A stretch of 64,000 bases of DNA from Roseibacillus ishigakijimensis (GTDB taxonomy: Bacteria > Verrucomicrobiota > Verrucomicrobiia > Verrucomicrobiales > Akkermansiaceae). Shown here in pieces: positions 1,444 to 56,877 of this stretch (position 1 is the stretch's first letter; every line of letters begins with the position of its first letter). The stretch covers positions 1-64,000 of the forward strand of contig NZ_JAENIO010000003.1 of the NCBI RefSeq assembly GCF_016595415.1. The letters are read 5' to 3'. Both the position numbers and the translations under genes were made by a program. Below the pieces are notes generated by a model, which did no database searches, was not told the origin of the DNA, and worked only from the letters and a program-made list of their open reading frames with translations.

Positions 1444-1446
1444 GGA

Positions 1447-2148
1447 TTAGCTACCGGAATGATCGTTGTAAACTTCCTTGGCGATAAGGCCGTCTTTCAT
1501 ATGAATCACGCGATGGGCGTGCTGGGCTACGGCGTCATCATGGGTGACCATCACAATCGTTTTCCCCTCGCCATTGAGCTCGTTGAGGATGGCGAGCACT
1601 TCTTCTTCTGTTTCGGAATCGAGGTTGCCCGTGGGTTCGTCTGCTAGAATCATCAGGGGCTCATTGACGAGAGAGCGTGCGATGGCGACCCGTTGCTGTT
1701 GCCCTCCCGAGAGTTGGTTGGGGCGGTGATCCAAGCGCTCACCGAGACCCACGAGTTTGGCTAAATCCACGCAGCGGTCATGATGCTCGGCCAAGTCCTC
1801 TTGTTGATAGATGAGAGGGACCTGAATGTTCTCGATTACAGTTAGTTGGGCAATGAGATTATAGGATTGGAAAATGAAACCCAGCCGCTTGCCCCGCACT
1901 TGCGAAAGGGTGTCGTCGTCCATTTCCGCCACGTTGTCGGGTCCCAGAAAATACTCCCCGGTTGTCGGCCGGTCGAGACAGCCCAGAATGTTGAGCAAAG
2001 TGGATTTTCCGGATCCTGAGGGGCCCATGATCGCCACGAAGGAGCCTTTCTCGATGGTGAGGTCGACGCCCCGGAGAGCCCGCACCACGCTATCGCCGAC
2101 CTGAAAGTTTTTAACGATCTGCCGGATCTCAATGACGGATTCGCTCAT
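1447..2148 (-). CDS. MacB/LolD-type ABC transporter ATP-binding protein
   Basis: A 233-residue ABC ATPase that should power the neighbouring permease. It shows a Walker A motif (GPSGSGKST), the signature [13 protein letters not shown], a Walker B segment ([13 protein letters not shown]) and an H-loop (VTHD), all in the order expected for the LolD/MacB subfamily. I chose the ATG at 2148 (MSESVIEI). A GTG three codons earlier overlaps the upstream stop codon by one base and would also work, which suggests translational coupling to the adaptor gene. Length and motifs are complete. Confidence 0.93.
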
Positions 2149-2156
2149 GATCCACA

Positions 2157-3662: not shown

Positions 3663-3668
3663 AGCAGG

Positions 3669-41584: not shown

Positions 41585-41651
41585 AGGTGGGCCCATTCCA
41601 CCTCCCCACCCCCGTCGGCGCACGCCGAAAGTGAGAAAATCCGTTCGTGGG

Positions 41652-41739
41652 ATTCAAGATTCAAGATTCAAGATTCAAGATTCAAGATTCAAGATTCAAG
41701 ATTCAAGATTCAAGATTCAAGATTCAAGATTCAAGATTC
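41652..41739. repeat. Heptamer tandem repeat (ATTCAAG), 12 copies plus four bases
   Basis: Perfect head-to-tail copies of ATTCAAG in the 234-base gap between metY and the array. The rest of this gap (41740-41818) shows no gene. A similar-sized heptamer block lies on the other side of the array between cas2 and cas1. Confidence 0.95.
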
Positions 41740-41818
41740 CCCGGATTACGGTGGAGATAGGAGGAGTGGGGAGATGAGAGTCTTGCGTCTTGCATCTTGC
41801 AGTCTTGAATCTTTTTTC

Positions 41819-43409
41819 GTCTTCAGTGCCTTTCGGCTGAGGGGATTGGGGGGAGAGCGACCCCAGACTGAAGGCCAGCTTCTCGCTGGCCTTGTCTTCA
41901 GTGCCTTTCGGCTGAGGGGATTGGGGGGAGGAAGTGTTTGAAGACCGGGCCGCGTTTGACGCGCGGTCTTCAGTGCCTTTCGGCTGAGGGGATTGGGGGG
42001 AGGGATTACATTGTCGGCCTGTTCACCTGCGATTGGGATGTCTTCAGTGCCTTTCGGCTGAGGGGATTGGGGGGAGCTTCGGTTCAAGGATCAGTCTAAG
42101 CCGCAATTAACACGTCTTCAGTGCCTTTCGGCTGAGGGGATTGGGGGGAGGTTGAGAGGAGACGACATGTCTTACACTTACGTGAGCTGTCTTCAGTGCC
42201 TTTCGGCTGAGGGGATTGGGGGGAGCGTGAACACTGTTCACTTGATTAGCACTGTTCAGTAGTGTCTTCAGTGCCTTTCGGCTGAGGGGATTGGGGGGAG
42301 GGAAGGATGGAAAGAAACGTTATCCAGTCACTGAACGTCTTCAGTGCCTTTCGGCTGAGGGGATTGGGGGGAGACCGCCTACGGAATTGAAAAGCGTGGT
42401 CATGGGGCGCGTCTTCAGTGCCTTTCGGCTGAGGGGATTGGGGGGAGAGTCGCATGGATGAATACGATCTTGAGCAAATGAAAAAGAGTCTTCAGTGCCT
42501 TTCGGCTGAGGGGATTGGGGGGAGATGGCTAAAAAAGAGAACCCCGAGATTATCGCTTGGTCTTCAGTGCCTTTCGGCTGAGGGGATTGGGGGGAGAGGA
42601 GTCTTATCCGAAGGTTTGTATTCCGGTTTGCGGGTCTTCAGTGCCTTTCGGCTGAGGGGATTGGGGGGAGAACCGAGTGTTGGGAGAGTCTTAAATTAAG
42701 GATATGTCTTCAGTGCCTTTCGGCTGAGGGGATTGGGGGGAGGATGGAATGCGCGCAAGGGGTTTACTTGCGCGCAAGGTCTTCAGTGCCTTTCGGCTGA
42801 GGGGATTGGGGGGAGCTGCCTGGAATGCACGGGCTGCACGGGCTGCACGGGGTCTTCAGTGCCTTTCGGCTGAGGGGATTGGGGGGAGCGTGCTATTGTA
42901 GAACTAGAGAGTTCTATTCAATACGTCTTCAGTGCCTTTCGGCTGAGGGGATTGGGGGGAGATCTAAGGTGTCACTAAAACACGGCGGAAGCGCCGAGTC
43001 TTCAGTGCCTTTCGGCTGAGGGGATTGGGGGGAGTGGCGAGCTTTTCCTGATCATGTTAGTTTTTTGCGCGCTCTGTCTTCAGTGCCTTTCGGCTGAGGG
43101 GATTGGGGGGAGTGAGGCCAGCGAAGGTGAGCTAGCCTCCAATATTGGAGGTCTTCAGTGCCTTTCGGCTGAGGGGATTGGGGGGAGTCAATATAACCTT
43201 CAATAACAATACCTAGCATCACTAGGGTCTTCAGTGCCTTTCGGCTGAGGGGATTGGGGGGAGTCCCAAACAATACCTAGCATCACTAGGTATTGTTTTG
43301 TCTTCAGTGCCTTTCGGCTGAGGGGATTGGGGGGAGCAATTATGAACATGATATTCGTCAGTCGGCATGAACGTCTTCAGTGCCTTTCGGCTGAGGGGAT
43401 TGGGGGGAG
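41819..43409 (-). CRISPR. CRISPR array, 22 repeats and 21 spacers
   Basis: Twenty-two 37-base repeats that look identical by eye, starting at 41819, 41894, 41966, 42040, 42114, 42189, 42264, 42337, 42411, 42488, 42560, 42634, 42706, 42779, 42852, 42925, 42998, 43076, 43151, 43227, 43300 and 43373. On the plus strand the repeat begins GTCTTCAGTGCCTTTCGGCT and ends in ATTGGGGGGAG. Spacers are 35-41 bases. I infer leftward transcription: the minus-strand repeat ends ACTGAAGAC, like the usual 8-base type III tag, the cas genes run the same way, and the cas2-side flank can serve as leader. The repeat core GCCGAAAGGC forms a short GNRA hairpin. Confidence 0.97.
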
Positions 43410-43595
43410 AGGGTAGCAGTAATCCACTCGCTGCCAATCCTCAAATGGGTGCTTTTGACGGGACCATCGTTCGCGCACCAGATTGAGGGTGGCTGGAGAG
43501 GTCGATAGGCGCTTTCTCTGGGTTCTATCACTTTATTTTGAGTGGTTTCTGTGTGTTGACGCGAGGTGGCGGTTTTGGGCTCTTTGGCCGTCGCG
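43410..43595 (-). promoter_or_regulatory. Probable CRISPR leader
   Basis: A 186-base non-coding gap between the array and the cas2 stop codon. It should hold the leftward array promoter and the site where new spacers enter. A run with CAAAATAAA on the minus strand could be a -10 region, but no convincing box pair is seen. The assignment rests on position and on array orientation. Confidence 0.55.
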
Positions 43596-43871: not shown

Positions 43872-43943
43872 GTCGGTATTTCCCGGCGGGGACCATTGAT
43901 AGGGAACTTGGGGGAAGAGGTCGTCCCACCAGGGGGGAGTTGA

Positions 43944-44030
43944 GAGTTCAGAGTTCAGAGTTTTGAGTTTTAAGTTTTAAGTTTTGAGTTTTGAGTTTTG
44001 AGTTTTGAGTTTTGAGTTTTGAGTTTTGAG
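43944..44030. repeat. Heptamer tandem repeat (GAGTTTT), 12 copies plus three bases
   Basis: Two GAGTTCA copies are followed by GAGTTTT and AAGTTTT variants and then seven perfect GAGTTTT copies, filling most of the gap between cas2 and cas1. The copy number almost equals that of the ATTCAAG block beyond the array. Confidence 0.93.
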
Positions 44031-44035
44031 TGGGG

Positions 44036-45043
44036 TTAGTTGATGAGGAAGGGGGAGAGGTCGTGGGGTGGGGCGAGGGCGGATTTGAAGTCGGTGACGG
44101 CGTAGTCGAATTGCTGGCGCAGGGAGGTGCGGTGCTGACGCTGGGTGGAGAGGAATTCGCGTTGCACGCGCTTTTCATACTGGAGGATGAGCTTTTGGCG
44201 GCCGATGGGGTCGAGGTGGATGCCGCCGTCTTCGCTGGGTTGGAAGTGTTGCTGCTGGAGCATGCCGCGGGAGAAGAGGTCGAGGGTGAGGGCTTCGACG
44301 ATGACGGGGCGGAAGGGCTCGATGAGGTCGAGAGCGAGGGAGGGGCGGCCGGAGTCGGGGCTGTGAAAGACGGGGAGGGCGGGGTCGAGCCCGTGGGCGT
44401 GGAGGAGGGCGGTGAGCTCGTTGGTGAGGACGACGGAGATGAAGGAGAGGACGGCGTTGACGGGGTTGAGTGGGGGGCGGCGGGAGCGTTTCTCGAAGGG
44501 GAAGTCGCTGGGGAGAAGGCGGGCCCAGGCGGAGAGGTAGGTGGCGGAGGCGGCGCCTTCGAGGCCGAGGAGCTCGGGGGCGTCGCCGGGGTGGAGGGCG
44601 CGCTGGTGGAGGGCGTTGAGGCGGGCGAGCTCGGTGGTGGAGTCGTGCCCCCGGTCGTTGCAGAGGCGCTGGAGGAGGCGGCGCTGGTTGCGAATCTTGG
44701 CGGCGATGAGCTGGGCGGCGAGGGGGAGGGAGCGCGCGGGGGAGAGGGTGAGCTCGTATTGGCGGAGCCGGGCGGGGGCGTGATGGCTGCCGGGGGAGAG
44801 GGTGGTGCCGAGGAAGCGGGTGGCGCTGTGGTTCAAGTGGACGACGGGGATTTCCTCATCCATGAGGGCGGCGAGGGCGGGTCCGGTGAGGGTGATGCCG
44901 GAGGTGACGATGAGGCGGTCGAGGTCGCGCAGGGGGATCTGGCGGCTGACTTTCTGGTCGTCTTCATTGACGCCGGAGACGTCGAGACGACGGGAGACAA
45001 GGCGCACGGTGGCGCGGGGCAGGGTTAACCAGGCGGAGGGCAT
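44036..45043 (-). CDS. cas1: CRISPR integrase Cas1
   Basis: A 335-residue Cas1. The metal-binding residues expected of the family are present: Glu in LLGLEGAASATYLSAW, His in LPVFHSPDSGRPSLALDLIEPF, and the acidic residue in DLIEPFRPVI. There is no fused reverse transcriptase. I start at the ATG at 45043 (MPSAWLTLPRATVRL); a longer in-frame start would translate REP-like palindromes and is rejected. With Cas2 it forms the adaptation module of this type III-B locus. Confidence 0.93.
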   Translation of the reverse strand: MPSAWLTLPRATVRLVSRRLDVSGVNEDDQKVSRQIPLRDLDRLIVTSGITLTGPALAALMDEEIPVVHLNHSATRFLGTTLSPGSHHAPARLRQYELTLSPARSLPLAAQLIAAKIRNQRRLLQRLCNDRGHDSTTELARLNALHQRALHPGDAPELLGLEGAASATYLSAWARLLPSDFPFEKRSRRPPLNPVNAVLSFISVVLTNELTALLHAHGLDPALPVFHSPDSGRPSLALDLIEPFRPVIVEALTLDLFSRGMLQQQHFQPSEDGGIHLDPIGRQKLILQYEKRVQREFLSTQRQHRTSLRQQFDYAVTDFKSALAPPHDLSPFLIN

Positions 45044-45060
45044 GAGGTGGGAGGGTGGGT

Positions 45061-45135
45061 GCAAGCCTCTGGCTTGGCACAGTGGTGGGTGCAAGCGTCT
45101 CGCTTGGCACAGGTGGGTGGGCAAGCTTCCAGCTT
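45061..45135. repeat. REP-like palindromes between cas1 and the csx1-type gene
   Basis: Three imperfect palindromes: GCAAGCCTCTGGCTTGGC (45061-45078), GCAAGCGTCTCGCTTGGC (45091-45108) and GCAAGCTTCCAGCTTG (45121-45136). The first two recur, in the same order and at near-identical spacing, in cad1 and between cmr4 and cmr3. They fill the 110-base gap between cas1 and the next gene. Confidence 0.9.
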
Positions 45136-45153
45136 GATGGGGGCAAAATGCGC

Positions 45154-46443
45154 TTAGGGAATGAGGGTGGGAAAAGCGGCAACAAGCTCGGATACCTTAT
45201 CCCTCAGAGCGGAAGCCTTGTGGGATTTGTCGTTGTGGTTGGCGTGATTGAGATCGTTCCGAGGCCCCGTGGTTTGGCTCCAAAGGGTTTCAAAGGTGGC
45301 AAGAAGGGTCGGGGGGAGCTCTTCGCTTTTGGCTAGAAGATCTTCGTCGAGAGATTGTTTCTTTGCTTTGGGGTTTGTGCGATAATTGAGAATGGCTTCA
45401 AAAGGTTTGCGTTCCGAATAAACGAGTGGAAAAGGAGGGGCTGGGCGCAAATGGGCTGCGAAGGCGGTTACGATCCACTCCCTTGCCAAGGTCAAGGCGG
45501 ACACGGGGTGTCCTTTCGCCAGAAGCCATCGGATGAGGTCGAGTTGGGCTTGGAGATCGGTTTCCTCAGGAAGGTTGCTTTCGGAATTCTTTCGGGAAGA
45601 CAGCCCTGCCTCCCGGTGAGCGATTAGCTCGTCTGCAATCAATTTGATAAGGTGTCCGAAAGGGGGAAGGAATTGGTCTATCTCTGTTTCGGCGGCGTCC
45701 GACTTGGTTTTGAGTTCGCTGGCAGAGGTTGAAAGATCCTGCAATCGAAGGGTGCGGAGATTTGCGGAGGTCTCACGTAATGTTCTCGCCAAAGGGGTCA
45801 GATTGCGTGGGTTCTCGGATTTGGAAAGCGTCTTATTCGCCCAGAGGTTTCTTTGAGTATGCTCAATGAGATGGCTAATTTGAGTTGCGTCACCTGTTTC
45901 GAAAAAAGATTCGGCAGCGCTCGTCCACTGGAGAAGTGAGAGAAAGGGTGAAAGATCGAAGGTGGGCTTGAGAGGATAATCCCTAGGAACGGCATCGAAG
46001 GCTCCATAATAGAGACCGTGAACCTGAACGGCGCGGGTCATCCTGAGATAAGTAAGAGCAAGAAGAGTGACAATGGGGGTGCTACGAAAGCCGTGTGTGA
46101 TATCAGCGATGATATTTTCTCCTTTGCAGAGGTTTTCGGTGAGAACTTGAAAGTAATCCCAGAGATCGGATTCCGTTCCCGTTTGCAATGGAAGCTGGAA
46201 AAATTCAACTTCGTATCCTGTGAGTTCTTTTCTCAATTCCTTTTCATGTTTGTTAGATGCGTCCTGTGTGGTGATGACAAGTATGCGAACAGGGTGAGTC
46301 CACTTTGCTAAGGCCGCTGAGAAAAATCTGCTTGTGAGGGGTTGAGGGTCGGTGTGTTGTGGCTGTGGAAGGTTCGAAAAATCACAAGGGTTGTATGTGG
46401 TTTCGGTATAGTTTCCGATGCCGAGAAAGGTGATAAGAGTCAT
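45154..46443 (-). CDS. CARF-HEPN effector of the Csx1/Csx2 (TM1812, DxTHG) family
   Basis: A 429-residue type III accessory ribonuclease. The N-terminal CARF domain starts MTLITFLGIGNYTETTY and contains DITHGFRSTP, the DxTHG motif (D114-G118) that should contact cyclic oligoadenylate. The C-terminal half is helical and ends with RNDLNH (R395-H400), the RxxxxH motif of HEPN ribonucleases. It should be switched on when Cas10 makes the second messenger and then cut RNA. I start at the ATG at 46443; a longer frame is antisense-like extension. It lies 17 bases after cad1. Confidence 0.88.
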   Translation of the reverse strand: MTLITFLGIGNYTETTYNPCDFSNLPQPQHTDPQPLTSRFFSAALAKWTHPVRILVITTQDASNKHEKELRKELTGYEVEFFQLPLQTGTESDLWDYFQVLTENLCKGENIIADITHGFRSTPIVTLLALTYLRMTRAVQVHGLYYGAFDAVPRDYPLKPTFDLSPFLSLLQWTSAAESFFETGDATQISHLIEHTQRNLWANKTLSKSENPRNLTPLARTLRETSANLRTLRLQDLSTSASELKTKSDAAETEIDQFLPPFGHLIKLIADELIAHREAGLSSRKNSESNLPEETDLQAQLDLIRWLLAKGHPVSALTLAREWIVTAFAAHLRPAPPFPLVYSERKPFEAILNYRTNPKAKKQSLDEDLLAKSEELPPTLLATFETLWSQTTGPRNDLNHANHNDKSHKASALRDKVSELVAAFPTLIP

Positions 46444-46460
46444 TGCGGTGGAATTAAGGA

Positions 46461-49118
46461 TTATTGGTGAGATAGATGAATCTGCCCCAACAGCCTTTCC
46501 CGCTCTTCTTGCGGCAGGAAGCTGTGCTCGATGGCGTGGCGTAGGAGGTGCAGAACGTCGAGACGGGTGAGGCCGGGGCAGAGGCGAGGCAGGAGTAGAA
46601 GGTTGTCGCTGAGGCTGGCGGCACTGATGCCGATGTTGTCGGTATTGACGGTGACGGGAACCCCGGCTCGCAGGTAGCGGAGGAGGGGGTAGCGTTTCTC
46701 TTCCGGGGCCAGGTCGACGGCTTTGTCGAGGGGATAGCCTTTGATTTGTAGATTGGCGTAGGGACACATCTCGATGGCGATGCGACGTTGGGCCACCGAG
46801 CGGAGGAGGGCGGGGCTCTCGTGGAGGGAGAGTCCGTGGCCGAGACGCATGGCGGAGAGGTCGAAGATGGCGGACCAGATGGCTTCGGCATCGTCGTTCT
46901 CGCCCGCATGCACGGTGAGGGAGAGTCCGGCCCGGTGGACGGGGAGGAAGTCGTCGCGGAAGTAGTGGGAGCGGGTGCTGGGATCCTCGAATCCGGCAAG
47001 GTCAACCCCGACGACCCGGCAGCTGCGGCTCTCACCAAAGTGCTCGGCAGCGGTGACCGCGAGCATGAGGTGCTTGATGATTTGGGTGCGGTAGTCGCCC
47101 CCCGGTTGGCGCGTGCCGATGATGATGAGGTTGATGGTGGGAGCAAGCCTCTGGCTTGGCTCAGAGGTGGCGGCAAGCGTCTCGCTTGGCAGGGAATGAC
47201 CCGCGTCCGGGACGGCCGGGGTCACCTCTGGACAAGCTGGGAAGCTTGTTCCCACCTCAGGGCAAGCAGGGGTGCTTGCCCCCACGACCAGTCCAAGACC
47301 TTGTCCCACCAGGTAGCCTTGCTCTAGACCGGCCTTTTCCGGATTCTCCGCGATGTAGTGCCGATAGTGCTCCAGCTGGCGTTCGCTCCGCACCAGATGG
47401 TCATAGGATTCGTGTTGCCAGAGCTGGCCCGCGCGATTTTCGCGCTCATTGATGGCCTTGGCGGTGAAGGATTTCCAGGAGTGAAGAATGTCGGCCAGCT
47501 TGTGCGAGCCGAGAGGCTTGACTAAGGCGTGGACGTGATTGGGCATCACCACGAAGCGGTCGAGGATGTAGCGCTCGCCGTCGAAGTGCTGGAGGGCTTG
47601 TGCCACGAGGGCTGCGTTTTCGGGATTCCGGAGAAGGCAAGAGCCATGGGAGCGATCGAGCCAGTTCTCGAGCTGGCGGGGAAATCGGCGCTGATAGTTG
47701 CGCCAGATTTCTTCGCTCCAGGGCTTGGGATGCTTGGCAAGGAAGAGCTCTCGTTCGGCCAGCCAACTTTTCACCCGGTCCTTGGGAAGGGAATCCGCGA
47801 GCCGGAAGGTGACAAAGGCGGTGGCCCCTTCCTGATGACGGTGGGGAAGGTCGCGCCAGGTTTGGGAATAGTCTTTGTCTTCGTTGTAGGGGATGAAGGT
47901 GGCAGCCTCTCCCGCGCCCGGGACGGGCGGGGACACGGGACTGCAAGCTGGGAAGCTCGCAGCCACGGGACTGCAAGCTGGGAAGCTCGCAGCCACCTCC
48001 TCAAAGCCCGTGAGGATCTCCTCCAGCACCTTCCAGGGCGAGCGCCCCGGGGAGGCGTAATTCCCGGGCGAACAACGGACCTCCGCATGCTGAATGTTCT
48101 CGGCTGCAAAGTGGTGATAAAGCAGCTCGATCTGCTTGCGCAGGCAGCCCGGGTCGCGGAGCAGGGCCGAGCCATTGAGGTCGCCGAGATGGCGGTAGGG
48201 CTCCAGCCCGATGGGCTCGGCCGGGCATGGCCAGTCTGCCGGGGGAGAAGTCTTGCGATCCGCTTCACTGTCCGGCTCGGGCAGAGGAGGGAGCCTCTCC
48301 GGATGCCTTGCCGCCGCCCGCACCTCCGCCAGCAGCGCGCCGTGGGTGGCAAAGCCTCCCAGATGACAGTGCAACTCCACTTTCGGCAGCCCCCGCACCC
48401 AATCGGCATCCGCGTTCGGGTCGAGCGGCTGGTTGAGCCAATCCCGCGCCGCCGGAGACCAACGGGCGATTTGGGGAAAGGGCAACGCTGCCAGCTCCCT
48501 TTCCGATTGCGCGAGCCGATTGGCCTCCTGCAGCCGGTTCTGCACCTGTTCGCGGAGAGTAATGTTTTCAATACGAAGCGTCTCCCCCTGCGGGGCCGGA
48601 GCCTCGTCGAGCAAAGTCTGGATAGTCGGCCAACCGGGTCGGGGACCGAGGTCGATCAAATTGATCAGTCCCTCCGCGATGCCTTGGCGAAATTCTGCAT
48701 CGGTATCAAAGCGATGACCGAAAGGGCTGGTGATATGAAACAACTTGCCGCAGCCCAGCAGATCGGCGGTCTGGTGCACGGCACTGGAAATGGTCTTGAA
48801 CCCTCCCGCGAGGCAGAGATGGATCTTCTCCAAACTCTCCTCCTGTCGCAAGACCGCCGCATAGCAGCGCAGAAGAGCTTCCTCGAACCGGGCGTGGTCG
48901 CCATGATTGCGGATATCGGGCAGATCGGCGATGACCCGAAGCGAAAGCGCCACCTGCGGCGCGTGCCCGGCAAACCACTCCCGAACCTGCCTCACGCTAT
49001 CAGGGACCCCCGAGGTGGCCAGCACCGTGACGCGGGCATACTGCTCCGGACCATTCCCCAGCAAAAAAGCCTCCGGCACGACCCCAAAGCTGGAGCCCAA
49101 TGTAGCGAGAAGGTGCAT
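46461..49118 (-). CDS. cad1: Cad1 (CARF-adenosine deaminase) with an in-frame RAYT domain inserted
   Basis: An 885-residue open frame. Residues 1-160 are a CARF domain (MHLLATLGSSFGVVPEAFLL; LCLAGGFKTISS is the ligand-loop motif). Residues 243-376 and 662-880 are the two halves of an adenosine deaminase: HCHLGG (H250, H252), VHAGE (H737, catalytic E740), LGHG (H761) and NTDN (D827) are all kept. Between them, residues about 377-661 are a REP-associated tyrosine transposase with palindromes at each end. Cad1 without such an insert (about 600 residues) is known to convert ATP to ITP when its CARF domain binds cyclic oligoadenylate. Whether the insert is tolerated, spliced or excised is unknown. 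It lies 6 bases after cmr1. Confidence 0.9.
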   Translation of the reverse strand: MHLLATLGSSFGVVPEAFLLGNGPEQYARVTVLATSGVPDSVRQVREWFAGHAPQVALSLRVIADLPDIRNHGDHARFEEALLRCYAAVLRQEESLEKIHLCLAGGFKTISSAVHQTADLLGCGKLFHITSPFGHRFDTDAEFRQGIAEGLINLIDLGPRPGWPTIQTLLDEAPAPQGETLRIENITLREQVQNRLQEANRLAQSERELAALPFPQIARWSPAARDWLNQPLDPNADADWVRGLPKVELHCHLGGFATHGALLAEVRAAARHPERLPPLPEPDSEADRKTSPPADWPCPAEPIGLEPYRHLGDLNGSALLRDPGCLRKQIELLYHHFAAENIQHAEVRCSPGNYASPGRSPWKVLEEILTGFEEVAASFPACSPVAASFPACSPVSPPVPGAGEAATFIPYNEDKDYSQTWRDLPHRHQEGATAFVTFRLADSLPKDRVKSWLAERELFLAKHPKPWSEEIWRNYQRRFPRQLENWLDRSHGSCLLRNPENAALVAQALQHFDGERYILDRFVVMPNHVHALVKPLGSHKLADILHSWKSFTAKAINERENRAGQLWQHESYDHLVRSERQLEHYRHYIAENPEKAGLEQGYLVGQGLGLVVGASTPACPEVGTSFPACPEVTPAVPDAGHSLPSETLAATSEPSQRLAPTINLIIIGTRQPGGDYRTQIIKHLMLAVTAAEHFGESRSCRVVGVDLAGFEDPSTRSHYFRDDFLPVHRAGLSLTVHAGENDDAEAIWSAIFDLSAMRLGHGLSLHESPALLRSVAQRRIAIEMCPYANLQIKGYPLDKAVDLAPEEKRYPLLRYLRAGVPVTVNTDNIGISAASLSDNLLLLPRLCPGLTRLDVLHLLRHAIEHSFLPQEERERLLGQIHLSHQ
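47143..47279. repeat. REP-like palindromes at the 3' boundary of the RAYT insert
   Basis: Four palindromes: GCAAGCCTCTGGCTTGGC (47143-47160), GCAAGCGTCTCGCTTGGC (47173-47190), a ACAAGCTGGGAAGCTTGT-type copy (47232-47249) and GGCAAGCAGGGGTGCTTGCC (47261-47280). They are translated as the linker between the transposase and the second deaminase half. Confidence 0.9.
47934..47993. repeat. Two 30-bp tandem repeats with REP-like core at the 5' boundary of the insert
   Basis: Two identical 30-base units (47934-47963 and 47964-47993) each contain GCAAGCTGGGAAGCTCGC, an imperfect palindrome of the same family. They encode VAASFPACSP twice in the protein. Thirty bases keep the frame. Confidence 0.9.
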
Positions 49119-49124
49119 GCGAGG

Positions 49125-49973
49125 TTAGGCGGTGAGTTGGGGGAGAGCGGATTGAAGAAGGCGGCCTAGTTCGGCTTTTCCTTCGAAGGTCTTCATCATT
49201 TTTATCGCAGCTTCTAGGTTTGCAGGATTGTCTTGGGAGTCGCTTGGAATCCAAAGCGCCAGGAGACGATAGGCTTGGTCGAGGTCCACGACTTTCAGTT
49301 TGAGTGAAGAAGGCTTTCGAGGAGAAGCCGAACCGAAAACAGCGCCGGGAACGGTGGAGGGATTTTTCCAATCCTTTGGAGCATGTTTTGGAAAGCGTCC
49401 TGCTAGATCCCGGGCTTCAATATCATTCTCAAATACGCGGTCGAGAATGGCGAAGGAGACTCTGCTCCCTTTCGTTAGGTCGCCGACGATGATCTCGAAA
49501 TCTTTCTGGGTCGTCGGGCATTTCTCCCAAAGAACCGATCCGGCTGCCCGATTGGAGCGCTGCCCGATGGAGCCGAGAAGAAGCCAAGCCTCGGTCGCTT
49601 GCTTGAGTTGTTCTTTGAAAGATCCCGAAAGGCCCTCCCGGCGTGGTATCAGCGAAAGTCGAAAGAATGTCCCCGGAGTGATGGCGAACTTGGGTTTGCG
49701 GCTTTTATGTGGCAAAAACGGAGACTCTGAAATGTCGGGTGGTTCGATTGGCTCTACTCTAACGATGACGAGAGACGCTTTGTTACCTCCTTTGACTTTT
49801 CCAAAGATATGGTCGGCATCCGCTTTCGAGTAACCCAGCGCTTCGTGCCACCAGCGAATCATTCCTTTGACTGAAGGAGCGCGGAGTTCGGGCTGATTGA
49901 AATCCTGGGTTTGGTAGGCTCCGTGGACGAAGGTGTCGCTGAGGAGGGTGAACTGATAGGTGAGAGTTTCCAT
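49125..49973 (-). CDS. cmr1: Type III-B RAMP protein Cmr1
   Basis: A 282-residue Cmr1. The start METLTYQFTLLSDTFVHGAY and the motif LRAPSVKGMIRWWHEALG are diagnostic, as is LLLGSIGQRSNRAAGSV. Cmr1 caps the 3' end of the crRNA in the Cmr complex. The ATG at 49973 is used; the stretch upstream belongs to cmr6. It lies between cmr6 (one base away) and cad1 (six bases). Confidence 0.9.
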   Translation of the reverse strand: METLTYQFTLLSDTFVHGAYQTQDFNQPELRAPSVKGMIRWWHEALGYSKADADHIFGKVKGGNKASLVIVRVEPIEPPDISESPFLPHKSRKPKFAITPGTFFRLSLIPRREGLSGSFKEQLKQATEAWLLLGSIGQRSNRAAGSVLWEKCPTTQKDFEIIVGDLTKGSRVSFAILDRVFENDIEARDLAGRFPKHAPKDWKNPSTVPGAVFGSASPRKPSSLKLKVVDLDQAYRLLALWIPSDSQDNPANLEAAIKMMKTFEGKAELGRLLQSALPQLTA

Positions 49974-49974
49974 C

Positions 49975-51351
49975 TTAGCTGAGTTCAATGTTGTGGGATT
50001 GGGCCAGGTCACGAAGATTTTCCCAGAGTTGGGCTTTCTTTTTGGACCACTGCTTTCGGCGTTCTTTTTTGGCTTTGCTGAGCAGGACATCGAAGAAGGC
50101 CAGTTGTTCGTCTCTTTCGCTTTCCGAAAGAGAATTGGCGAGACTGGCAAAATCTTGATCGTTCAGAGCGGAAATGTTCTCGCGGAATCGGTCCCGAGCC
50201 GGGAGATTCGCCAAGCGCTCTTCTTCGGCCTTCGCGGCGGCTTGCGCTTCCGCCTCCTCTCGGGCGCGGGCTTCGGCGGCTGCCTGTTCCGCAGCGATGC
50301 GGGCTTGCTCGGCGGCGAGAGCTTCGGCTTGTCTGGCTTCTGCCTGGGGATCGAGTTTGAACCAGCCATAGCCAGCCCCGGTCTTGGCTCCGATGCCGTT
50401 GTTGGCGAGAGCGGATTGGAGCCATTTTTTGGCCATTTCAAGCAAGGTGCTGCGAGTGAGATCTTGCAACCCTTTGCCAGCAGGGGACCGATTGGCGATG
50501 ATGGCGAAGGCAAACTCCGAACCCGCTTCGACGGCAGGAAAGAAGATTGGTCGGAGGTTGTTATTGAAGTGGGGGGTGAGAACTTCGGCCACGATGGCCA
50601 GTCTTTTGGTGCTGGATGGCTGAGCTGGCAGAAAGGAACAGAGGCCTTTGAAGGTGTCGCTGGGGAAGCCGCGGTGAGCCTCTTCGAGCAGAGCCTGCTT
50701 TCCGTGGACCGCCCAAAGGAAATCGCCGTTCCTAGCGGTGTCGTTGGGACTGAAGCCAAAGATGGCGAGAGCCTGACGAAGAAGGAGGGTCTGCTTGGCA
50801 GGTTCGTCTTGTGAGTTCCGAATTTCCCACAGAGCTTCGTGGCGGGTGATTCCCTTGATCGCGCTTCCTGGAATAATGGGGAGGCCAGTGATACGGTCCA
50901 GGGAAAGGCCGGAGTTCTCCATCACCCCTCCCGCCATGTTGATAAGGAGGCGGCCTCCCAGCTGGGCAGGGAAGGTGACGCAGCGACCCCCGTAGGTCCG
51001 GGCGAGGTCCGCTTGCAGACGGAGAGTGGAGCGGATTCGTGACTCTGCCAAGTTGGTGTTCTCCAGGCGAATTCCCGCCAAAGCGCCGGCGACCTTGGCC
51101 TTGTAAGCTTCTTTGTCGGCATTCTTTCCACCACGCTGCGCTTTGCGAGAGGCGGCTTCGCGCTCTTGGCCGAGCACTTTGTGTCCGTCAAATGAGGCTC
51201 GGAGAACGTTGAATCGCTGGGCATCTTCAAAGCGAGCTTCGTGACCCCAGGTCTTGGCGAGAACCATTTTCTCGAAGAGGAGAGAGCGGTTTTCGACCCT
51301 GTCGGCGAAGGCTCCAATGGATTCGCGGGTGTCTTTTGCTAAAGGAATCAT
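49975..51351 (-). CDS. cmr6: Type III-B RAMP protein Cmr6 with a long C-terminal extension
   Basis: A 458-residue Cmr6. The RAMP core is within residues 1-335 and shows TGLPIIPGSAIKGITRHEAL and the Gly-rich end NNGIGAKTGAGYGWF. Residues about 336-458 are an Ala/Glu/Lys-rich helical extension (start DPQAEARQAEALAAEQARIA) followed by a folded-looking tail with SESERDEQLAFFDVLLSKAK. Typical Cmr6 has about 300-330 residues. Cmr6 caps the Cmr4 filament next to Cmr1. Confidence 0.9.
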   Translation of the reverse strand: MIPLAKDTRESIGAFADRVENRSLLFEKMVLAKTWGHEARFEDAQRFNVLRASFDGHKVLGQEREAASRKAQRGGKNADKEAYKAKVAGALAGIRLENTNLAESRIRSTLRLQADLARTYGGRCVTFPAQLGGRLLINMAGGVMENSGLSLDRITGLPIIPGSAIKGITRHEALWEIRNSQDEPAKQTLLLRQALAIFGFSPNDTARNGDFLWAVHGKQALLEEAHRGFPSDTFKGLCSFLPAQPSSTKRLAIVAEVLTPHFNNNLRPIFFPAVEAGSEFAFAIIANRSPAGKGLQDLTRSTLLEMAKKWLQSALANNGIGAKTGAGYGWFKLDPQAEARQAEALAAEQARIAAEQAAAEARAREEAEAQAAAKAEEERLANLPARDRFRENISALNDQDFASLANSLSESERDEQLAFFDVLLSKAKKERRKQWSKKKAQLWENLRDLAQSHNIELS

Positions 51352-51357
51352 GGCATC

Positions 51358-51726
51358 TTAGGTGGTGACGAAACGACGGGCGTAGGCGAGCCACTCCATG
51401 GCCTCAGCGGTCGCCAGCTTGAGGGTTTGGCTGTCGGATTCTGTGAGTTTGACGATTAGATCTGGGGCTCCCTTGCTGGAGATGATGGCTATATCGGAAG
51501 ATCCGAGATGTTTAGCGATGGCATCAAAGATAGCGGCATAGCCGGGGCGTTGAAGTTTGTCGTTTTTGACTTCAACCGAAAAAGCAATGGCAGCGAGAAG
51601 TCCATTAGATGCAATCATGGGTGGAATCTTCTTGATGGCCTCACCACCGTCTTTTCCTCTTTTTTCCGCAGGGCTATTTGCAAAGGCGAGGGCGTTTGCG
51701 GCGCGAATTTGAGCGAGATTTTTCAT
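51358..51726 (-). CDS. cmr5: Type III-B small subunit Cmr5
   Basis: A 122-residue, mostly helical small subunit. It starts MKNLAQIRAANALAFA and keeps IPPMIASNGLLAAIAFS and the end TAEAMEWLAYARRFV, which match the Cmr5 family. The ATG at 51726 is used. It binds target RNA along the Cmr filament. Its position between cmr4 and cmr6 is standard. Confidence 0.88.
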   Translation of the reverse strand: MKNLAQIRAANALAFANSPAEKRGKDGGEAIKKIPPMIASNGLLAAIAFSVEVKNDKLQRPGYAAIFDAIAKHLGSSDIAIISSKGAPDLIVKLTESDSQTLKLATAEAMEWLAYARRFVTT

Positions 51727-51734
51727 GATAGTTC

Positions 51735-52586
51735 TTATTTGAGGGTGATGGAGCAAAAGCCTCGACCGGTGGTGGAGTTTCCCCCGAATTGCATGATGGG
51801 GTTGTTCTCTACGATGGCTGCAAGGCCCGCTTCGCTATCGGTATCCTTGTATCGTCCGATGATTTGTACTGGAGCGGCGAAGAGGGTTTCTGCCGGGATG
51901 CATTCCATGTTGAAGAGCGCCCCCTTTGCAACTGCTCCAGTCTCGGGATTAATCTTAGTTTGGGTGGAGATTTCGGTAGTGGTGGTGACGAAGTGGGCAA
52001 AGTCGCCATCACTGAGCAGGACGAGCCGATCCTTGGCTTCTTGCCAGACCGGGTCTTCGCTGAGGGAAAGAAGGGCGGTTTGCCATTCGGCGGGGAAGTC
52101 CTCTTTCTTTTCGAAGGCATATTCTTCCAAGACCACTCGTTTGGCCGGATTGTCGATACTGACTGTTTTGCCGGCGAGACAGGTTTGGTCGTTTGGTTGG
52201 GGCAAGTCGGAGAGGTCGGGAAGGTTGGCTTCGCGGGCAAAGCGCTGCAGGACGAAGGGGCAGGTCACGTAAGCAAAAGCCCCTTTAGCAGAGCGCACCG
52301 GAAAGGCGATGGGCCGGGCTTCGCCGAAGGCAAGGTCGCCAGCTTGAGCTTTGTTGGTGTCGTCAATCTCGTCATTGTCGGGGCCAAAGAGGTCGCGAAT
52401 GAGAGATTGCGTGTCTTGGGAATGGGAAGCGCAGTCGCGGAAGACTCCTTTGATTGAGCTACCGGGAATGATGGGATGATTCGTATGGCGCTCCCGGCGG
52501 ATGGGGAGGTCCACCGCTCCGACAGATGAACCCACTCCAACATGGAGGGGAGTGCGGGTGAAGATGTAGAGTAGTTTTGTTTTCAT
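51735..52586 (-). CDS. cmr4: Type III-B backbone subunit and RNase Cmr4
   Basis: A 283-residue RAMP. The start MKTKLLYIFTRTPLHVGVGS and SSVGAVDLPIRRERHTNHP are strongly conserved, with D26 in the position of the catalytic Asp of characterised Cmr4. PIIPGSSIKGVFRD and the Gly-rich QFGGNSTTGRGF complete the fold. It should cut target RNA at six-base intervals. A 116-base gap of REP-like palindromes separates it from cmr3. Confidence 0.93.
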   Translation of the reverse strand: MKTKLLYIFTRTPLHVGVGSSVGAVDLPIRRERHTNHPIIPGSSIKGVFRDCASHSQDTQSLIRDLFGPDNDEIDDTNKAQAGDLAFGEARPIAFPVRSAKGAFAYVTCPFVLQRFAREANLPDLSDLPQPNDQTCLAGKTVSIDNPAKRVVLEEYAFEKKEDFPAEWQTALLSLSEDPVWQEAKDRLVLLSDGDFAHFVTTTTEISTQTKINPETGAVAKGALFNMECIPAETLFAAPVQIIGRYKDTDSEAGLAAIVENNPIMQFGGNSTTGRGFCSITLK

Positions 52587-52619
52587 GATGTTTCTGAGGT
52601 TGGATTGGAGAGGGTGGGT

Positions 52620-52722
52620 GCAAGCCTCTGGCTTGGCACAAGGGGGCGGCAAGCGTCTCGCTTGGCGTTGGGGGACTCGGCCAGGATGGCCGAGGTCACG
52701 ACTCAGCAAGCAGGATGCTCGC
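52620..52722. repeat. REP-like palindromes between cmr4 and cmr3
   Basis: GCAAGCCTCTGGCTTGGC (52620-52637), GCAAGCGTCTCGCTTGGC (52649-52666), a CTCGGCCAGGATGGCCGAG palindrome (52676-52694) and GCAAGCAGGATGCTCGCTGC (52706-52725). The last one overlaps the cmr3 stop and encodes its final residues. The first two match the copies in cad1 and near cas1. Confidence 0.9.
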
Positions 52723-54067
52723 TGCTACCGTGGTATCGAAAGTTCGAGCACACGCCGAGGCCGAAGCCTTTTTCGCCGAACAAGGAGGAGCGGCGGTTGA
52801 CGATGGTGGGGGCCAGCCTCTGGCTGGCGGGCGCTCCATGCCAGTTGAGCTCGTCAGCCAGCTTGCGTGCCTCTTTGTCGCTCTCGCACTCGAAGTAATA
52901 GACCGCTCCCGCCGGGACGGCGAGATGGGTGGATTTGGCCCCAAACCCGCGACCGCCTTCACCCTCCGCCTTTCCCAGCGACCATCCCGTCACCGGAATG
53001 GCAGGGGGAAGGAGGGCCGCGATCAGCTGGCCGTCGATGGCAGGGGCTCCGTTCACGGCATCGCGCCAAGCTTTGCGCGACTGCCCCTTCTCCCGCGCTG
53101 GCCGGGTCTTTAGGCGAATCTTCAGCATCTCCGGTTCAATCCAAGTCGGCAACCAGCCACCGGGATGATTGTTTTCGCCTGTGAGCAGGGGAAAAATGGC
53201 CGGGGTCAGCAGAGTCCAGCGCACCAGGTTTCCTGTGATCGCGCTTCCGGTCGGCAAAGGCAAGACCTCGGGAGTGGTGCGGTAAACGGTGCAGGTGCGT
53301 TGTTGTCCTCCCGCGAGAATATGGTTGGCGTGGCCTGAGTTTTGGAAGGTCTTCTCAATCAGATCGATGCGTCCCTCCTTGTCCTGAGCTTCTTTTTCGC
53401 CCTTATCCAAACAAGAGGTCAAGAGCCCCAAGGACCAGCCCTGCTGGAGGCGCAGGTAGGAGGCGGAGTAAAAGCTCTTTCCGTCCTGGGCCCCGGTGCT
53501 GGTCTCAATGCCGATTCCGATATTGTGTTCGGCCGAGAAAATCGTCTCATCGTGGCAATAGTGTTCCGCAGGCAAGGATTCCGTTTGCTTCAAGTAGGCC
53601 TGATAAGCGGCTGCGCTCAGCCATTTCTCGGCCTTGTTCTTTGAGGGTGGATGAAGGCTCACCACGGGCTTGAGCCCCTTGGTGAGACTGCTGGCGGCCC
53701 CTTCGGGAAGAGAGGCCAAAGGCCTGTGCGTGCTTTTGCTGGAGCCGATTTGGTCGGCATCGGCTGGACGAGGAAAAAACCACTCGCCATCCGGGCTCAC
53801 CGGGAAGGGTCCCACGGATTGCAGGGAGCCGAAGAGGCGGGTGCGTTTGCTCTCATTGTCGCGATCGCGATCCGACGATCGTCCCACGGTGTGTTTGTGA
53901 GCTTTCTTCTCCAGCCCCGAGCGATGGAGGGCGGCGTGTAGGGCGGAATCCAGCACATGAGGGAGCGGCCAAGCGGCACCATGACCGGCGGACGAGCCTT
54001 CCATGGGGCGACCATCTTTGAAAAAGAGGACGTCAGTGGGGCGGAGATTGAGTTGATGAATGGACAT
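52703..54067 (-). CDS. cmr3: Type III-B RAMP protein Cmr3 carrying a translated REP-like palindrome
   Basis: A 454-residue Cmr3, which binds the 5' tag of the crRNA beside Cas10. It begins MSIHQLNLRPTDVLFFKDGR and keeps PMEGSSAGHGAAWPLPHVL; the C-terminal Gly-rich GEKGFGLGVCSNF is also normal. Two oddities lie at the end: residues about 412-424 (APASQRLAPT) are encoded by a REP-like palindrome, the same amino acids that close the RAYT insert in cad1, and the last residues read into another palindrome. The core looks intact. Confidence 0.9.
   Translation of the reverse strand: MSIHQLNLRPTDVLFFKDGRPMEGSSAGHGAAWPLPHVLDSALHAALHRSGLEKKAHKHTVGRSSDRDRDNESKRTRLFGSLQSVGPFPVSPDGEWFFPRPADADQIGSSKSTHRPLASLPEGAASSLTKGLKPVVSLHPPSKNKAEKWLSAAAYQAYLKQTESLPAEHYCHDETIFSAEHNIGIGIETSTGAQDGKSFYSASYLRLQQGWSLGLLTSCLDKGEKEAQDKEGRIDLIEKTFQNSGHANHILAGGQQRTCTVYRTTPEVLPLPTGSAITGNLVRWTLLTPAIFPLLTGENNHPGGWLPTWIEPEMLKIRLKTRPAREKGQSRKAWRDAVNGAPAIDGQLIAALLPPAIPVTGWSLGKAEGEGGRGFGAKSTHLAVPAGAVYYFECESDKEARKLADELNWHGAPASQRLAPTIVNRRSSLFGEKGFGLGVCSNFRYHGSSEHPAC
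52812..52828. repeat. REP-like palindrome inside cmr3
   Basis: GCCAGCCTCTGGCTGGC lies in frame in the cmr3 coding region, after GATGGTGGGG, the same flank that precedes the palindrome at 47143 in cad1. It is read as APASQRLAP. Confidence 0.85.
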
Positions 54068-54090
54068 AAGGGGTTCGGGCTTTCGGCAGG

Positions 54091-56877
54091 TTAATGGGTG
54101 TTTAGGGCATAGGTTGTTTCTTCGTCGGCGCGGCGCTCATTGCGCACCGACCAAGCGGCGGTTCGAAGCAGGTTGATGAAGAGTGATAATTTCTTGTTGA
54201 AATCTTGTTTCTCAGCAGGGTTGTTCGGCCCCGTGAGGGTGCCCAGTTCTTCCCAATATCTTGTGAAGTCCTCTTTTTTCGTGGCTTCCGGGTGTCCTCC
54301 GTCATTGTGAGTGAGAACGTGCTCAACCTCTCGCAGTAAGAGTTTGCCAAAGAGTGGGTCGAATGACTCGTCTTCTCGGAGGCTCTTGGAGTGGTTCAGA
54401 TAAGGAACTAACAAGGCCTCCACCTTGTGTGGGAACCGGCCTTTGAGGCTCTCGCTCAACAAGTCCGTGATGAGGCTTTGCAGCAAAAGGTAGCCCGCCG
54501 AATCGGCAGTCTTCTTCGAGTCCGTGGACCACTTGCAGCCCCATTCCAGAATCTCGCCCGAGCGCTTCATCACGGTGATGGCCAGAGCCGCGCGGTTCAG
54601 TTGTTTCTTAGCCCGCTTTTCTGCCGACTGCGCGGCCCGAACCACATCTTGCAGCGGCGACTTTTGGTGGGCGATGGCGATGCCGACAGAGACGTCAGTG
54701 GCGGGTCCAGGCAGAAGCACGGAGAATTCGACTGGGTCGGAAAGGAGACCTTTACTCTCACCAAACGTCGCTCCCGAATCTTCGTGCAAGCGCAGGTAGC
54801 CCTCCTCGTCGCAGTTGAAGAGACGGCTTTTGCGGTCCGAGCGGCGCTTCTTTCCTTCTCCGATTAATTTGCCTCGAACTTTGTTGAGATGATCTTTTTC
54901 GCCCCGGAAGGCGGCGCGCAGGGCCCGTGCGCAAGCGACGGCATCTTTGGCGGGCAGCATGGCGAGAACATCATCGCCTCCGGCATAAAGAAGACGGCCG
55001 TCGAAGGCTTCCACGATGCGTTGCGCACAGTGGAAAGAAAAGTTGCCCAGCGCTTCCGAGAACTGTTGGTGCCAAGCCGGAGTGATGGCGCGGCGGGCTT
55101 CCAGAAAATCGGGAGCTTTTTCTTCGTAGTATTTGAGCGCTTCTGGAGAGAGGCAGTGGCGCATTTTCGGCGATTTGGATCCGGAGATCCACTTGCCCAT
55201 CTCGTCGCCGTCGAGGGCGAGGATGGCAAAATATTTTTCCCCCTCGCTCTCCTCGTATTCGTCGCTATCGGCGAAAGGGTCACCCTTCGCAATGGCGTGG
55301 GTGTTCGGCATGGGGTGCATCTCTTTGAGGGTGCTTGCCGAGATGCCAATCTCGTCCGGCAAGTAGCAATGCCACCACAGTCGCTTGATGAGGGTGGAAG
55401 CTCCCAGGAGTTCGTTGGCCTTGAAGGTGCCTTTGCTCATGCCGAGGATGAGACCCAATTTTTCGGCATCCTCGTTCCCGGAGGGAATGATCAACACCGC
55501 CTCCTCCTTACCGTTGAGGGAGTCCTTGTTGAACGTTGTTCCCGATTTCCATTCTCCCGTAGACCAAGCCTCGAAGGGACGCTGGGCTTTGGTGCCGTCG
55601 TGCAGCCATTGCAAGAGAGCGTTGAGAAGGCCCCATGCGGAAGTGGGAGAGGGATCGTATTGCGGTTTACAGTCTTCCTGCTGTATCATGTCCCGAATGG
55701 CGGCGATGGGAGCTCGGGGTTGATACCCCTTATCTTGTTTTTCGTCGGGAGGAAGGAGTTCATCAGCCTGCTTCCACACCTCCTCAAAGCCTTCCGGGAT
55801 GGCCAGGGTTTGCCAATGAAGGTCAAGGATGCGGGAGGTTTGTTCGTCGAAGCGGTCTCTCTCAAATTGGAGACCTAGTTTCCCAACTTCTCGCGCAACT
55901 GTGCCGGCGATATCGCTGAGTGTCTTCTGGATGGTCTTCCCGAGTTTGGCAGCGAATTCCTCGCAGGTTTCTCCGTTAGGAAGGGTGGCCGGAAGCACGG
56001 CCAGAAAACGATTGGGTAATGATGGAGTGAGGAGCTTGGACAAGTTGTATTCTTGATATCCCAAGCCCTTCCAGACTGTGTTCTCAGAAAAAGTGACTTT
56101 CTCAAATATCTCTCTCAGTTGCAGATCAAGAAGAGGTTGGTCGAGGAGGTTGGGGAAAATGACGTGATCGGGACCCAACTCGCGGGCGATCTCACCCAAG
56201 GCCGTGCTGATGAGGTAGGAAAGAAGGTAAGAACCCGACCACAAGTCCCTCGTGGACCGCGCGGAGGCGATGAAGGGTTGCACGGGACCGAGGGAAAAAA
56301 GGAGGAGGCGGGGATTCTGACTGGCGTCGATAAAGGTCTTGGTCCTGCCTTGGGCATCGGTGGAGCAGGGAATCTGGCAGGATTGCAGTGCGGAGGTGAC
56401 ACCCAGATGATGCCAGATGCTGTGGTCGGGAATGCGGGTGTCGGCGGGAAGAAAGGGGAAGCGGGCATCCGCGCTCGAAGCCCAGTTTCGCCAGAAGCGC
56501 CAGGCGCAGAGGTAGTCCGCCCTTGGGTCGTTGCCATCCAGGAGGAAGGGCCGGGTCTTTTGGCTGGTTTCGAGGGCTTCCATCGCCGAGCCGAACTTGG
56601 GGGCGGTGACCGTTGCCTCTCCCAAAGCATGAGGGAGTCTTTCCAATTCATCGAGAGACTGGCGCAAGCGTTTGGGATGGGGGAAGGGGAGGCGGTCTGC
56701 GGCGGAGGCGGCCCAGTCGGCGGACTTGTCAAAGCTCTCCTCGTCGGAAAACTGGTCCAAAGCCTTGAGCCAAGCGGCCCGGAACTCGTGACTGGCAATA
56801 TCTGTTGTCTTGTCGGGGGTGTCGTGAAGATAAGCGTTCAGCTTGCGGCGCCAAAGGTGATCGGAGGAACTGTTCAT
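54091..56877 (-). CDS. cas10: Type III-B large subunit Cmr2 (Cas10)
   Basis: A 928-residue Cas10. The N-terminal HD nuclease domain has AYLHDTPDK (H18-D19). The first palm domain contains LLLFSLGPVQPFIASARSTR. The second contains LALDGDEMGKWISG near residue 565 and LLYAGGDDVLAML near 634, the GGDD motif of the cyclic-oligoadenylate cyclase, both intact. So DNase and cyclase activities should both be possible. It is the first gene of the leftward cas operon, 73 bases from a divergent LysR-type gene. Confidence 0.94.
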   Translation of the reverse strand: MNSSSDHLWRRKLNAYLHDTPDKTTDIASHEFRAAWLKALDQFSDEESFDKSADWAASAADRLPFPHPKRLRQSLDELERLPHALGEATVTAPKFGSAMEALETSQKTRPFLLDGNDPRADYLCAWRFWRNWASSADARFPFLPADTRIPDHSIWHHLGVTSALQSCQIPCSTDAQGRTKTFIDASQNPRLLLFSLGPVQPFIASARSTRDLWSGSYLLSYLISTALGEIARELGPDHVIFPNLLDQPLLDLQLREIFEKVTFSENTVWKGLGYQEYNLSKLLTPSLPNRFLAVLPATLPNGETCEEFAAKLGKTIQKTLSDIAGTVAREVGKLGLQFERDRFDEQTSRILDLHWQTLAIPEGFEEVWKQADELLPPDEKQDKGYQPRAPIAAIRDMIQQEDCKPQYDPSPTSAWGLLNALLQWLHDGTKAQRPFEAWSTGEWKSGTTFNKDSLNGKEEAVLIIPSGNEDAEKLGLILGMSKGTFKANELLGASTLIKRLWWHCYLPDEIGISASTLKEMHPMPNTHAIAKGDPFADSDEYEESEGEKYFAILALDGDEMGKWISGSKSPKMRHCLSPEALKYYEEKAPDFLEARRAITPAWHQQFSEALGNFSFHCAQRIVEAFDGRLLYAGGDDVLAMLPAKDAVACARALRAAFRGEKDHLNKVRGKLIGEGKKRRSDRKSRLFNCDEEGYLRLHEDSGATFGESKGLLSDPVEFSVLLPGPATDVSVGIAIAHQKSPLQDVVRAAQSAEKRAKKQLNRAALAITVMKRSGEILEWGCKWSTDSKKTADSAGYLLLQSLITDLLSESLKGRFPHKVEALLVPYLNHSKSLREDESFDPLFGKLLLREVEHVLTHNDGGHPEATKKEDFTRYWEELGTLTGPNNPAEKQDFNKKLSLFINLLRTAAWSVRNERRADEETTYALNTH

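What the first reader, a model, noticed from the sequence alone, without database searches (positions are those of the whole stretch)
46461..49118. A CRISPR cyclic-oligoadenylate effector (Cad1) with a transposase inserted in frame in its deaminase domain
The CARF-adenosine deaminase frame runs for 885 codons without a stop. Residues 377-661 are a complete-looking RAYT domain (HUH H528/H530, Tyr 588) placed between two halves of the deaminase whose ligands (H250, H252, H737, E740, H761, D827) are all kept. The insert has no Met before residue 525, so it can only be translated as a fusion. This could be a chance insertion that was tolerated in a loop, or a domesticated fusion in which a single-strand DNA transposase shares control by the CARF domain. 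I know of Cad1 as CARF plus deaminase only; I know of no report of this three-part form.
Basis: partly seen in the sequence, partly recalled or inferred. Interest (0 to 1): 0.95.

Follow-up and report, generated by a model that had tools for sequence, protein, structure and literature searches.

The report
Transposase domain nested inside CRISPR Cad1
A CRISPR antiviral enzyme carries a complete DNA-cutting transposase inside its body, and this is one case of a widespread, apparently undescribed habit in which such transposases live as in-frame internal parts of bacterial proteins, including the cell's only copy of essential enzymes.

Summary
In detail: one 885-codon minus-strand frame encodes CARF, deaminase half 1, repeat linker, RAYT (HUH/Tyr) domain, repeat linker, deaminase half 2. 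The insert sits in an alpha/beta loop of the deaminase barrel, where Cad1 relatives have a short variable loop; the model re-forms one barrel across it. It is not a one-off. The same three-part Cad1 occurs in a sister species and in another family of the order. The three RAYTs form one clade, and in the sister pair the RAYT has dN/dS 0.11, like the deaminase (0.10). Wider searches show RAYTs, usually with flanking repeats, read through in frame inside about 15 unrelated proteins (LeuRS, CarB, MetH, AlaS, ClpB, RecG, HsdR and others) across Verrucomicrobiota and in some MAGs of other phyla. In 13 of 13 genomes checked the interrupted LeuRS was the only LeuRS found, and in 4 of 4 the only CarB. 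Best reading: a transposase adapted to live as an unspliced, translated domain of host proteins; Cad1 is one host. CARF control of the RAYT is not needed to explain it. REP-only in-frame insertions are known (PMC3733652); I found no report of nested RAYTs. No activity was tested.

The parts
46461..49118 (-). Cad1-RAYT fusion ORF, 885 aa
48579..49112 (-). CARF domain (residues 3-180)
   Evidence: matches to Cad1-CARF structures 9c68/9c69; fold match 9c6a_B TMt 0.86
47991..48413 (-). adenosine deaminase, N-terminal half (residues about 236-376; H250, H252)
47916..47990 (-). 5' linker: two translated 30-bp palindromic repeat units (residues 377-401; ASFPACSPVA repeated)
   Evidence: pLDDT under 50
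47289..47915 (-). RAYT / Y1 HUH transposase domain (residues 402-610; H528, H530, Y588)
   Evidence: model matches 4er8_A, Z 13.7, rmsd 2.7
47139..47288 (-). 3' linker: translated palindromes at 47263-47278, 47233-47248, 47174-47188, 47144-47158 (residues 611-660)
46464..47138 (-). adenosine deaminase, C-terminal half (residues 661-885; H737, E740, H761, D827)
45061..45137 (-). three further copies of the same palindrome family next to cas1 (outside Cad1)
52620..52665 (-). two further copies of the same palindrome family at the start of the predicted cmr4 ORF; period 29, not 30
49128..56877 (-). type III-B Cmr operon: Cmr1, Cmr6, unassigned 132-aa ORF (Cmr5 position), Cmr4, Cmr3, Cas10/Cmr2
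45157..46767 (-). TIGR02221-family CRISPR accessory protein downstream of Cad1 (start probably near 46440)
44039..45124 (-). Cas1
41819..43444 (.). CRISPR array, 22 repeats of about 37 bp

Best explanation
This is a cyclic-oligoadenylate-activated ATP deaminase (Cad1) that carries a protein-nested RAYT: a repeat-RAYT-repeat element that entered the loop between a barrel helix and the next strand, has no stop in the host frame, and is translated as an internal domain on two flexible linkers. Shown: one continuous frame, loop position, re-formed deaminase fold in the model, conserved catalytic residues, common descent in three genomes, purifying selection on the RAYT, and recurrence in many unrelated host proteins. 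Inferred: (1) Cad1 still makes ITP when cA4/cA6 binds; (2) the RAYT still binds and nicks single-stranded palindromes while tethered; (3) the element gains by nesting, because it borrows the host gene's expression and can be lost only by precise in-frame deletion. RAYTs of this type have repeatedly taken up this lifestyle; Cad1 is one host.
For: Frame, domains, catalytic residues. Empty sites in Cad1s of other genomes. Model: repeat linkers pLDDT under 50; a deaminase-domain Cad1 chain aligns across the insert, TMt 0.92, rmsd 2.9 over 671 columns; RAYT domain pLDDT 84, best match E. coli RAYT 4er8. Same fusion, same site in G003 and G039; the three RAYTs form one clade, SH-aLRT 99. dN/dS 0.11 RAYT, 0.10 deaminase. 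Class. Interrupted LeuRS is the only LeuRS found in 13/13 genomes and CarB in 4/4. HUH kept in 62/62 nested RAYTs; Met near the domain start in 14/73 nested-or-ambiguous versus 51/63 free. Repeats on both sides beyond shuffles: direct 26/60, inverted 42/60. No Rfam intron, no intein domain.
Against: No expression, activity or proteomic data. Most genomes are drafts or MAGs of varying completeness; a missed second LeuRS in one is possible, in 13 unlikely. The tree is a quick search with 44 open branches. The RAYT domain is below NCBI's equivalog cut-off (70.5 versus 80) though above Pfam's for Y1_Tnp. The Cad1 repeats carry GTGG where classical REPs carry GTAG. Purifying selection does not tell a host function from a selfish one.
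Confidence: 0.8

Rival explanations
1. Domesticated bifunctional effector: cyclic oligoadenylate binding to CARF also gates the RAYT, so activated Cad1 both deaminates ATP and nicks single-stranded (phage) DNA.
For: Fusion kept in two genera of two families with strong purifying selection on the RAYT; it is the only RAYT found in this genome; same-family palindromes cluster in the CRISPR locus.
Against: RAYTs nest equally in LeuRS, CarB, MetH and others with no such signal input. The linkers are long, disordered and differ completely between G000 and G039, a poor fit to allosteric coupling. Plain Cad1s are active without it (PMC11645235).
Confidence: 0.07
2. Recent chance insertion that happens to be in frame and tolerated, with no selection on the RAYT.
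For: Loop site; the insert carries repeats also found nearby.
Against: Shared by three genomes at one site, one RAYT clade; dN/dS 0.11; open frame unlikely by chance (0.37%).
Confidence: 0.04
3. The RAYT is made as a separate protein by internal initiation (GTG 385 or 395) or by proteolysis of the disordered linkers, and Cad1 is reassembled or carried as an inert fusion.
For: In-frame GTGs and disordered linkers.
Against: No well-placed Shine-Dalgarno; no stop codon ends the RAYT, so internal initiation would give RAYT plus the deaminase C-half; most nested RAYTs lack a Met near the domain start.
Confidence: 0.08
4. The insert is removed by splicing (intein-like or intron-like).
For: Essential sole-copy hosts, as for many inteins.
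Against: No intron family in Rfam, no intein/Hint domain in Pfam, repeats at the boundaries instead of splice residues.
Confidence: 0.02

Closest known systems
Cad1 / CAAD (CARF-adenosine deaminase; structures 9c67, 8z3k, 9ebt; PMC11645235, PMC12669630)
   Same: CARF plus deaminase aligned over both halves, metal ligands, the Gly (254) and Asn (828) that mark ATP-deaminating Cad1s (as TaqCad1), type III operon
   Different: a 285-residue repeat-RAYT-repeat insert between a barrel helix and strand
RAYT / TnpA-REP (E. coli 4er8; PMC6006769, PMC8266576)
   Same: HUH and catalytic Tyr, fold (Z 13.7), palindromes on both sides
   Different: no own start or stop codon; translated inside another protein; palindromes tagged GTGG, not GTAG; PMC6006769 discarded unexpectedly long proteins as gene fusions or annotation errors
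Intragenic REPs and Rickettsia RPEs (PMC3733652)
   Same: palindromic repeats inserted in frame in conserved, often essential proteins; most intragenic GTAG REPs in the verrucomicrobium Opitutus terrae
   Different: those inserts encode roughly 20-80 aa and no enzyme; here the whole transposase is inside
Inteins with homing endonucleases
   Same: an endonuclease living inside essential enzymes at permissive sites
   Different: no splicing machinery found; the insert appears to stay in the protein

Membership tests
Cad1 (CARF-ADA effector) | CARF domain joined to an adenosine deaminase fold | tested here: met
Cad1 (CARF-ADA effector) | deaminase metal ligands and catalytic residues conserved | tested here: met
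   H250, H252, H737, E740, H761, D827
Cad1 (CARF-ADA effector) | type III CRISPR locus | tested here: met
   Cmr operon, Cas10, Cas1, array
Cad1 (CARF-ADA effector) | cA4/cA6-dependent ATP to ITP deamination as a hexamer | not testable with these tools
   needs purified protein
RAYT / TnpA-REP | Y1 HUH fold with both His and the catalytic Tyr | tested here: met
   H528, H530, Y588; 4er8_A Z 13.7 rmsd 2.7; Pfam Y1_Tnp 27.7 over cut-off 23
RAYT / TnpA-REP | NCBIfam NF047646 equivalog cut-off | tested here: inconclusive
   70.5 bits, cut-off 80; other nested copies score above (86.6, 84.1, 80.7)
RAYT / TnpA-REP | flanked by palindromic repeats | tested here: met
classical GTAG REP repeats | GTAG tetranucleotide tag | tested here: not met
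   GTGG at the Cad1 repeats (read); hence called REP-like palindromes here
intein | Hint/intein splicing domain | tested here: not met
   no such Pfam match
IStron (IS605 plus group I intron) | group I intron RNA | tested here: not met
   no Rfam match up to E 1

The most novel reading that the evidence does not exclude
The nested RAYT has been made a working second effector of Cad1: cyclic oligoadenylate binding switches on both ATP deamination and single-strand DNA nicking, a two-headed CRISPR effector.
Probability: 0.07. Interest if true: 0.97.

Novelty: new variant of a known kind. Interest (0 to 1): 0.88.

Why it matters
It shows a way of life for a transposase that I could not find described: no start or stop codon of its own, translated as an internal domain of unspliced host proteins, including the only leucyl-tRNA synthetase found in a genome. 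That makes old questions testable: how RAYTs persist for so long, why palindromic repeats sit in frame inside conserved proteins, and how far proteins tolerate whole foreign domains. The insertion sites are a natural map of insertion-tolerant loops. For CRISPR biology it gives the first three-part Cad1 that I know of.

Tried and rejected
A mixed alignment of Cad1 and RAYT rows misaligned plain Cad1s onto RAYT columns, so a Cad1-only alignment was used for the model. ORF artefact: rejected by curated family matches on both sides of the insert in many hosts. Intron and intein: no support. Literature: searches for RAYT with in-frame insertion, Verrucomicrobia, fusion or synthetase found no nested RAYT; only open-licence PMC papers are held. 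Cad1 across the phylum: 9 of 388 genomes, none with a new fusion. Long frames with a RAYT near one end or with an unrecognised partner (L008, L009, L010/L164, L045, L052, L059, L061, L086, L097, L151) were left unassigned and not counted as nested.

Full report
Observation. The minus-strand frame 46461-49118 is open for 885 codons. It holds a CARF domain, the two halves of an adenosine deaminase, and between them a Y1/HUH transposase domain. Solved Cad1 chains match residues 2-379 and 654-880 and nothing in between. The transposase domain proper is about 402-610. The rest of the insert is mostly translated palindromic repeats with a 30-bp, that is 10-codon, period. The insert is 855 bp; in a first-order Markov simulation 0.37% of such sequences stay open in this frame.

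Context. The gene is in a type III-B locus: Cas10, Cmr3, Cmr4, Cmr6, Cmr1, Cad1, a TIGR02221-family protein, Cas1 and a 22-repeat array. The protein keeps the Gly (254) and Asn (828) that stand in Cad1 where classical adenosine deaminases have Asp, as reported for TaqCad1 (PMC12669630). So it looks like an ATP-deaminating Cad1.

Site. Cad1s without the insert (G054, G013, G367, G284, G310, L072-L074) have a short, variable loop exactly there, between a barrel helix and the next strand. From general knowledge of TIM barrels, loops that lead from a helix into a strand lie on the face away from the active site. In the AlphaFold2 model the repeat linkers are disordered, and a solved deaminase-domain chain (8z3k_F) aligns across the insert with TMt 0.92 and rmsd 2.9. 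So the halves can meet. The RAYT domain alone models well (pLDDT 84), and its best match is the E. coli RAYT bound to a REP hairpin, 4er8 (Z 13.7, rmsd 2.7).

History. The same fusion at the same site exists in G003 (same genus; record JAUTCR010000035.1, Verrucomicrobiota bacterium JB023; the contig end cuts its N-terminus) and in G039 (another family of the order). The three RAYTs form one clade (SH-aLRT 99). Between G000 and G003 the RAYT evolves with dN/dS 0.11, the deaminase with 0.10. The repeat linkers differ by whole 10-codon units, and G039 has quite different repeats around the same RAYT. All neighbouring palindrome pairs inside this Cad1 keep a period of 30 within each array; one copy elsewhere in the operon has 29.

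The class. A search of relatives returned many RAYTs inside very long frames. Fetching them showed RAYTs read through in frame inside LeuRS, CarB, MetH, IspG, AlaS, RecG, PglX/Eco57I-like methylases, HsdR, glycosyltransferases and a TPR protein; in ClpB, further LeuRS and CarB, HsdR and a two-domain dehydrogenase; and, in named genomes, ValRS, exonuclease VII large subunit, HsdR and methylases from Kiritimatiellae, Opitutales, Chloroflexales, Bacteroidetes and proteobacterial records. By my count, 33 of the roughly 150 best RAYT matches listed in the order lie in frames of 800 codons or more, and similar long frames occur across the phylum. In 13 of 13 genomes checked the interrupted LeuRS is the only LeuRS found, and in 4 of 4 the only CarB, while six others have CarB uninterrupted. 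LeuRS is essential (established knowledge), so the interrupted enzyme must work. The HUH motif is kept in 62 of 62 nested RAYTs; a Met near the domain start is present in 14 of 73 nested or ambiguous copies but in 51 of 63 free ones. Repeats shared by both flanks beyond shuffled controls are common (direct 26 of 60, inverted 42 of 60). In other hosts dN/dS of the nested RAYT, where it could be estimated, is 0.06-0.18. On the tree nested RAYTs largely group by host gene with several separate origins.

Mechanism. Most likely a repeat-RAYT-repeat element inserts in loops; only insertions that keep the frame survive in needed genes; the element then loses its own start and stop and is expressed and protected by its host. 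Shown: frame, descent, selection, sole-copy hosts. Inferred: retained deaminase and nicking activity, and the benefit of nesting. Nothing here requires CARF control of the RAYT.

Known. Palindromic repeats in frame inside proteins are known, most of all in Opitutus terrae (PMC3733652), but there they encode short peptides. A classification of the transposase family discarded unexpectedly long proteins as fusions or annotation errors (PMC6006769). No paper found describes RAYTs nested in proteins or a three-part Cad1; only the open-licence library was searched. I rate the finding a new variant of a known kind: it joins two known things (in-frame palindromic inserts, and RAYTs) in a form that I could not find described.

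Noticed in passing
G001, G003, G027, G031, G057, G068, G096, G106, G115, G135, G159, G237, G248 (LeuRS loci, e.g. L025, L027, L160): The only leucyl-tRNA synthetase found in each genome carries an in-frame RAYT at the same site (about profile position 360-370 of 843), with RAYTs of several clades.
   Followed up: partly
L056 (G039 Cad1, 502-3792 minus): This Cad1 also has a second in-frame repeat array without a RAYT (APWKAAPTDG-like unit, five copies) in another deaminase loop.
   Followed up: no
window 45061-45137, 47143-47189, 52620-52665; G000:C181:4816-4840: The palindrome family GCCAAGCCAGAGGCTTGC is nearly confined to the CRISPR locus of this genome (4 of 5 matches).
   Followed up: partly
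window 46461-49118 versus L055: dS of the Cad1 RAYT (0.55) is lower than that of the deaminase (0.85), whereas in other hosts the nested RAYT has higher dS than its host.
   Followed up: no
L009, L151: RAYT in frame upstream of a NUDIX-like protein; may be an N-terminal fusion or a long spurious frame.
   Followed up: no
L159, L089, L091, L094: HsdR genes with closely similar nested RAYTs in verrucomicrobial and proteobacterial records, suggesting horizontal spread of the interrupted hsdR (or mis-binning).
   Followed up: no
window 41637-41762 and 43923-44045: Short 7/14-bp tandem repeats (GATTCAA, GAGTTTT) border the CRISPR array on both sides.
   Followed up: no
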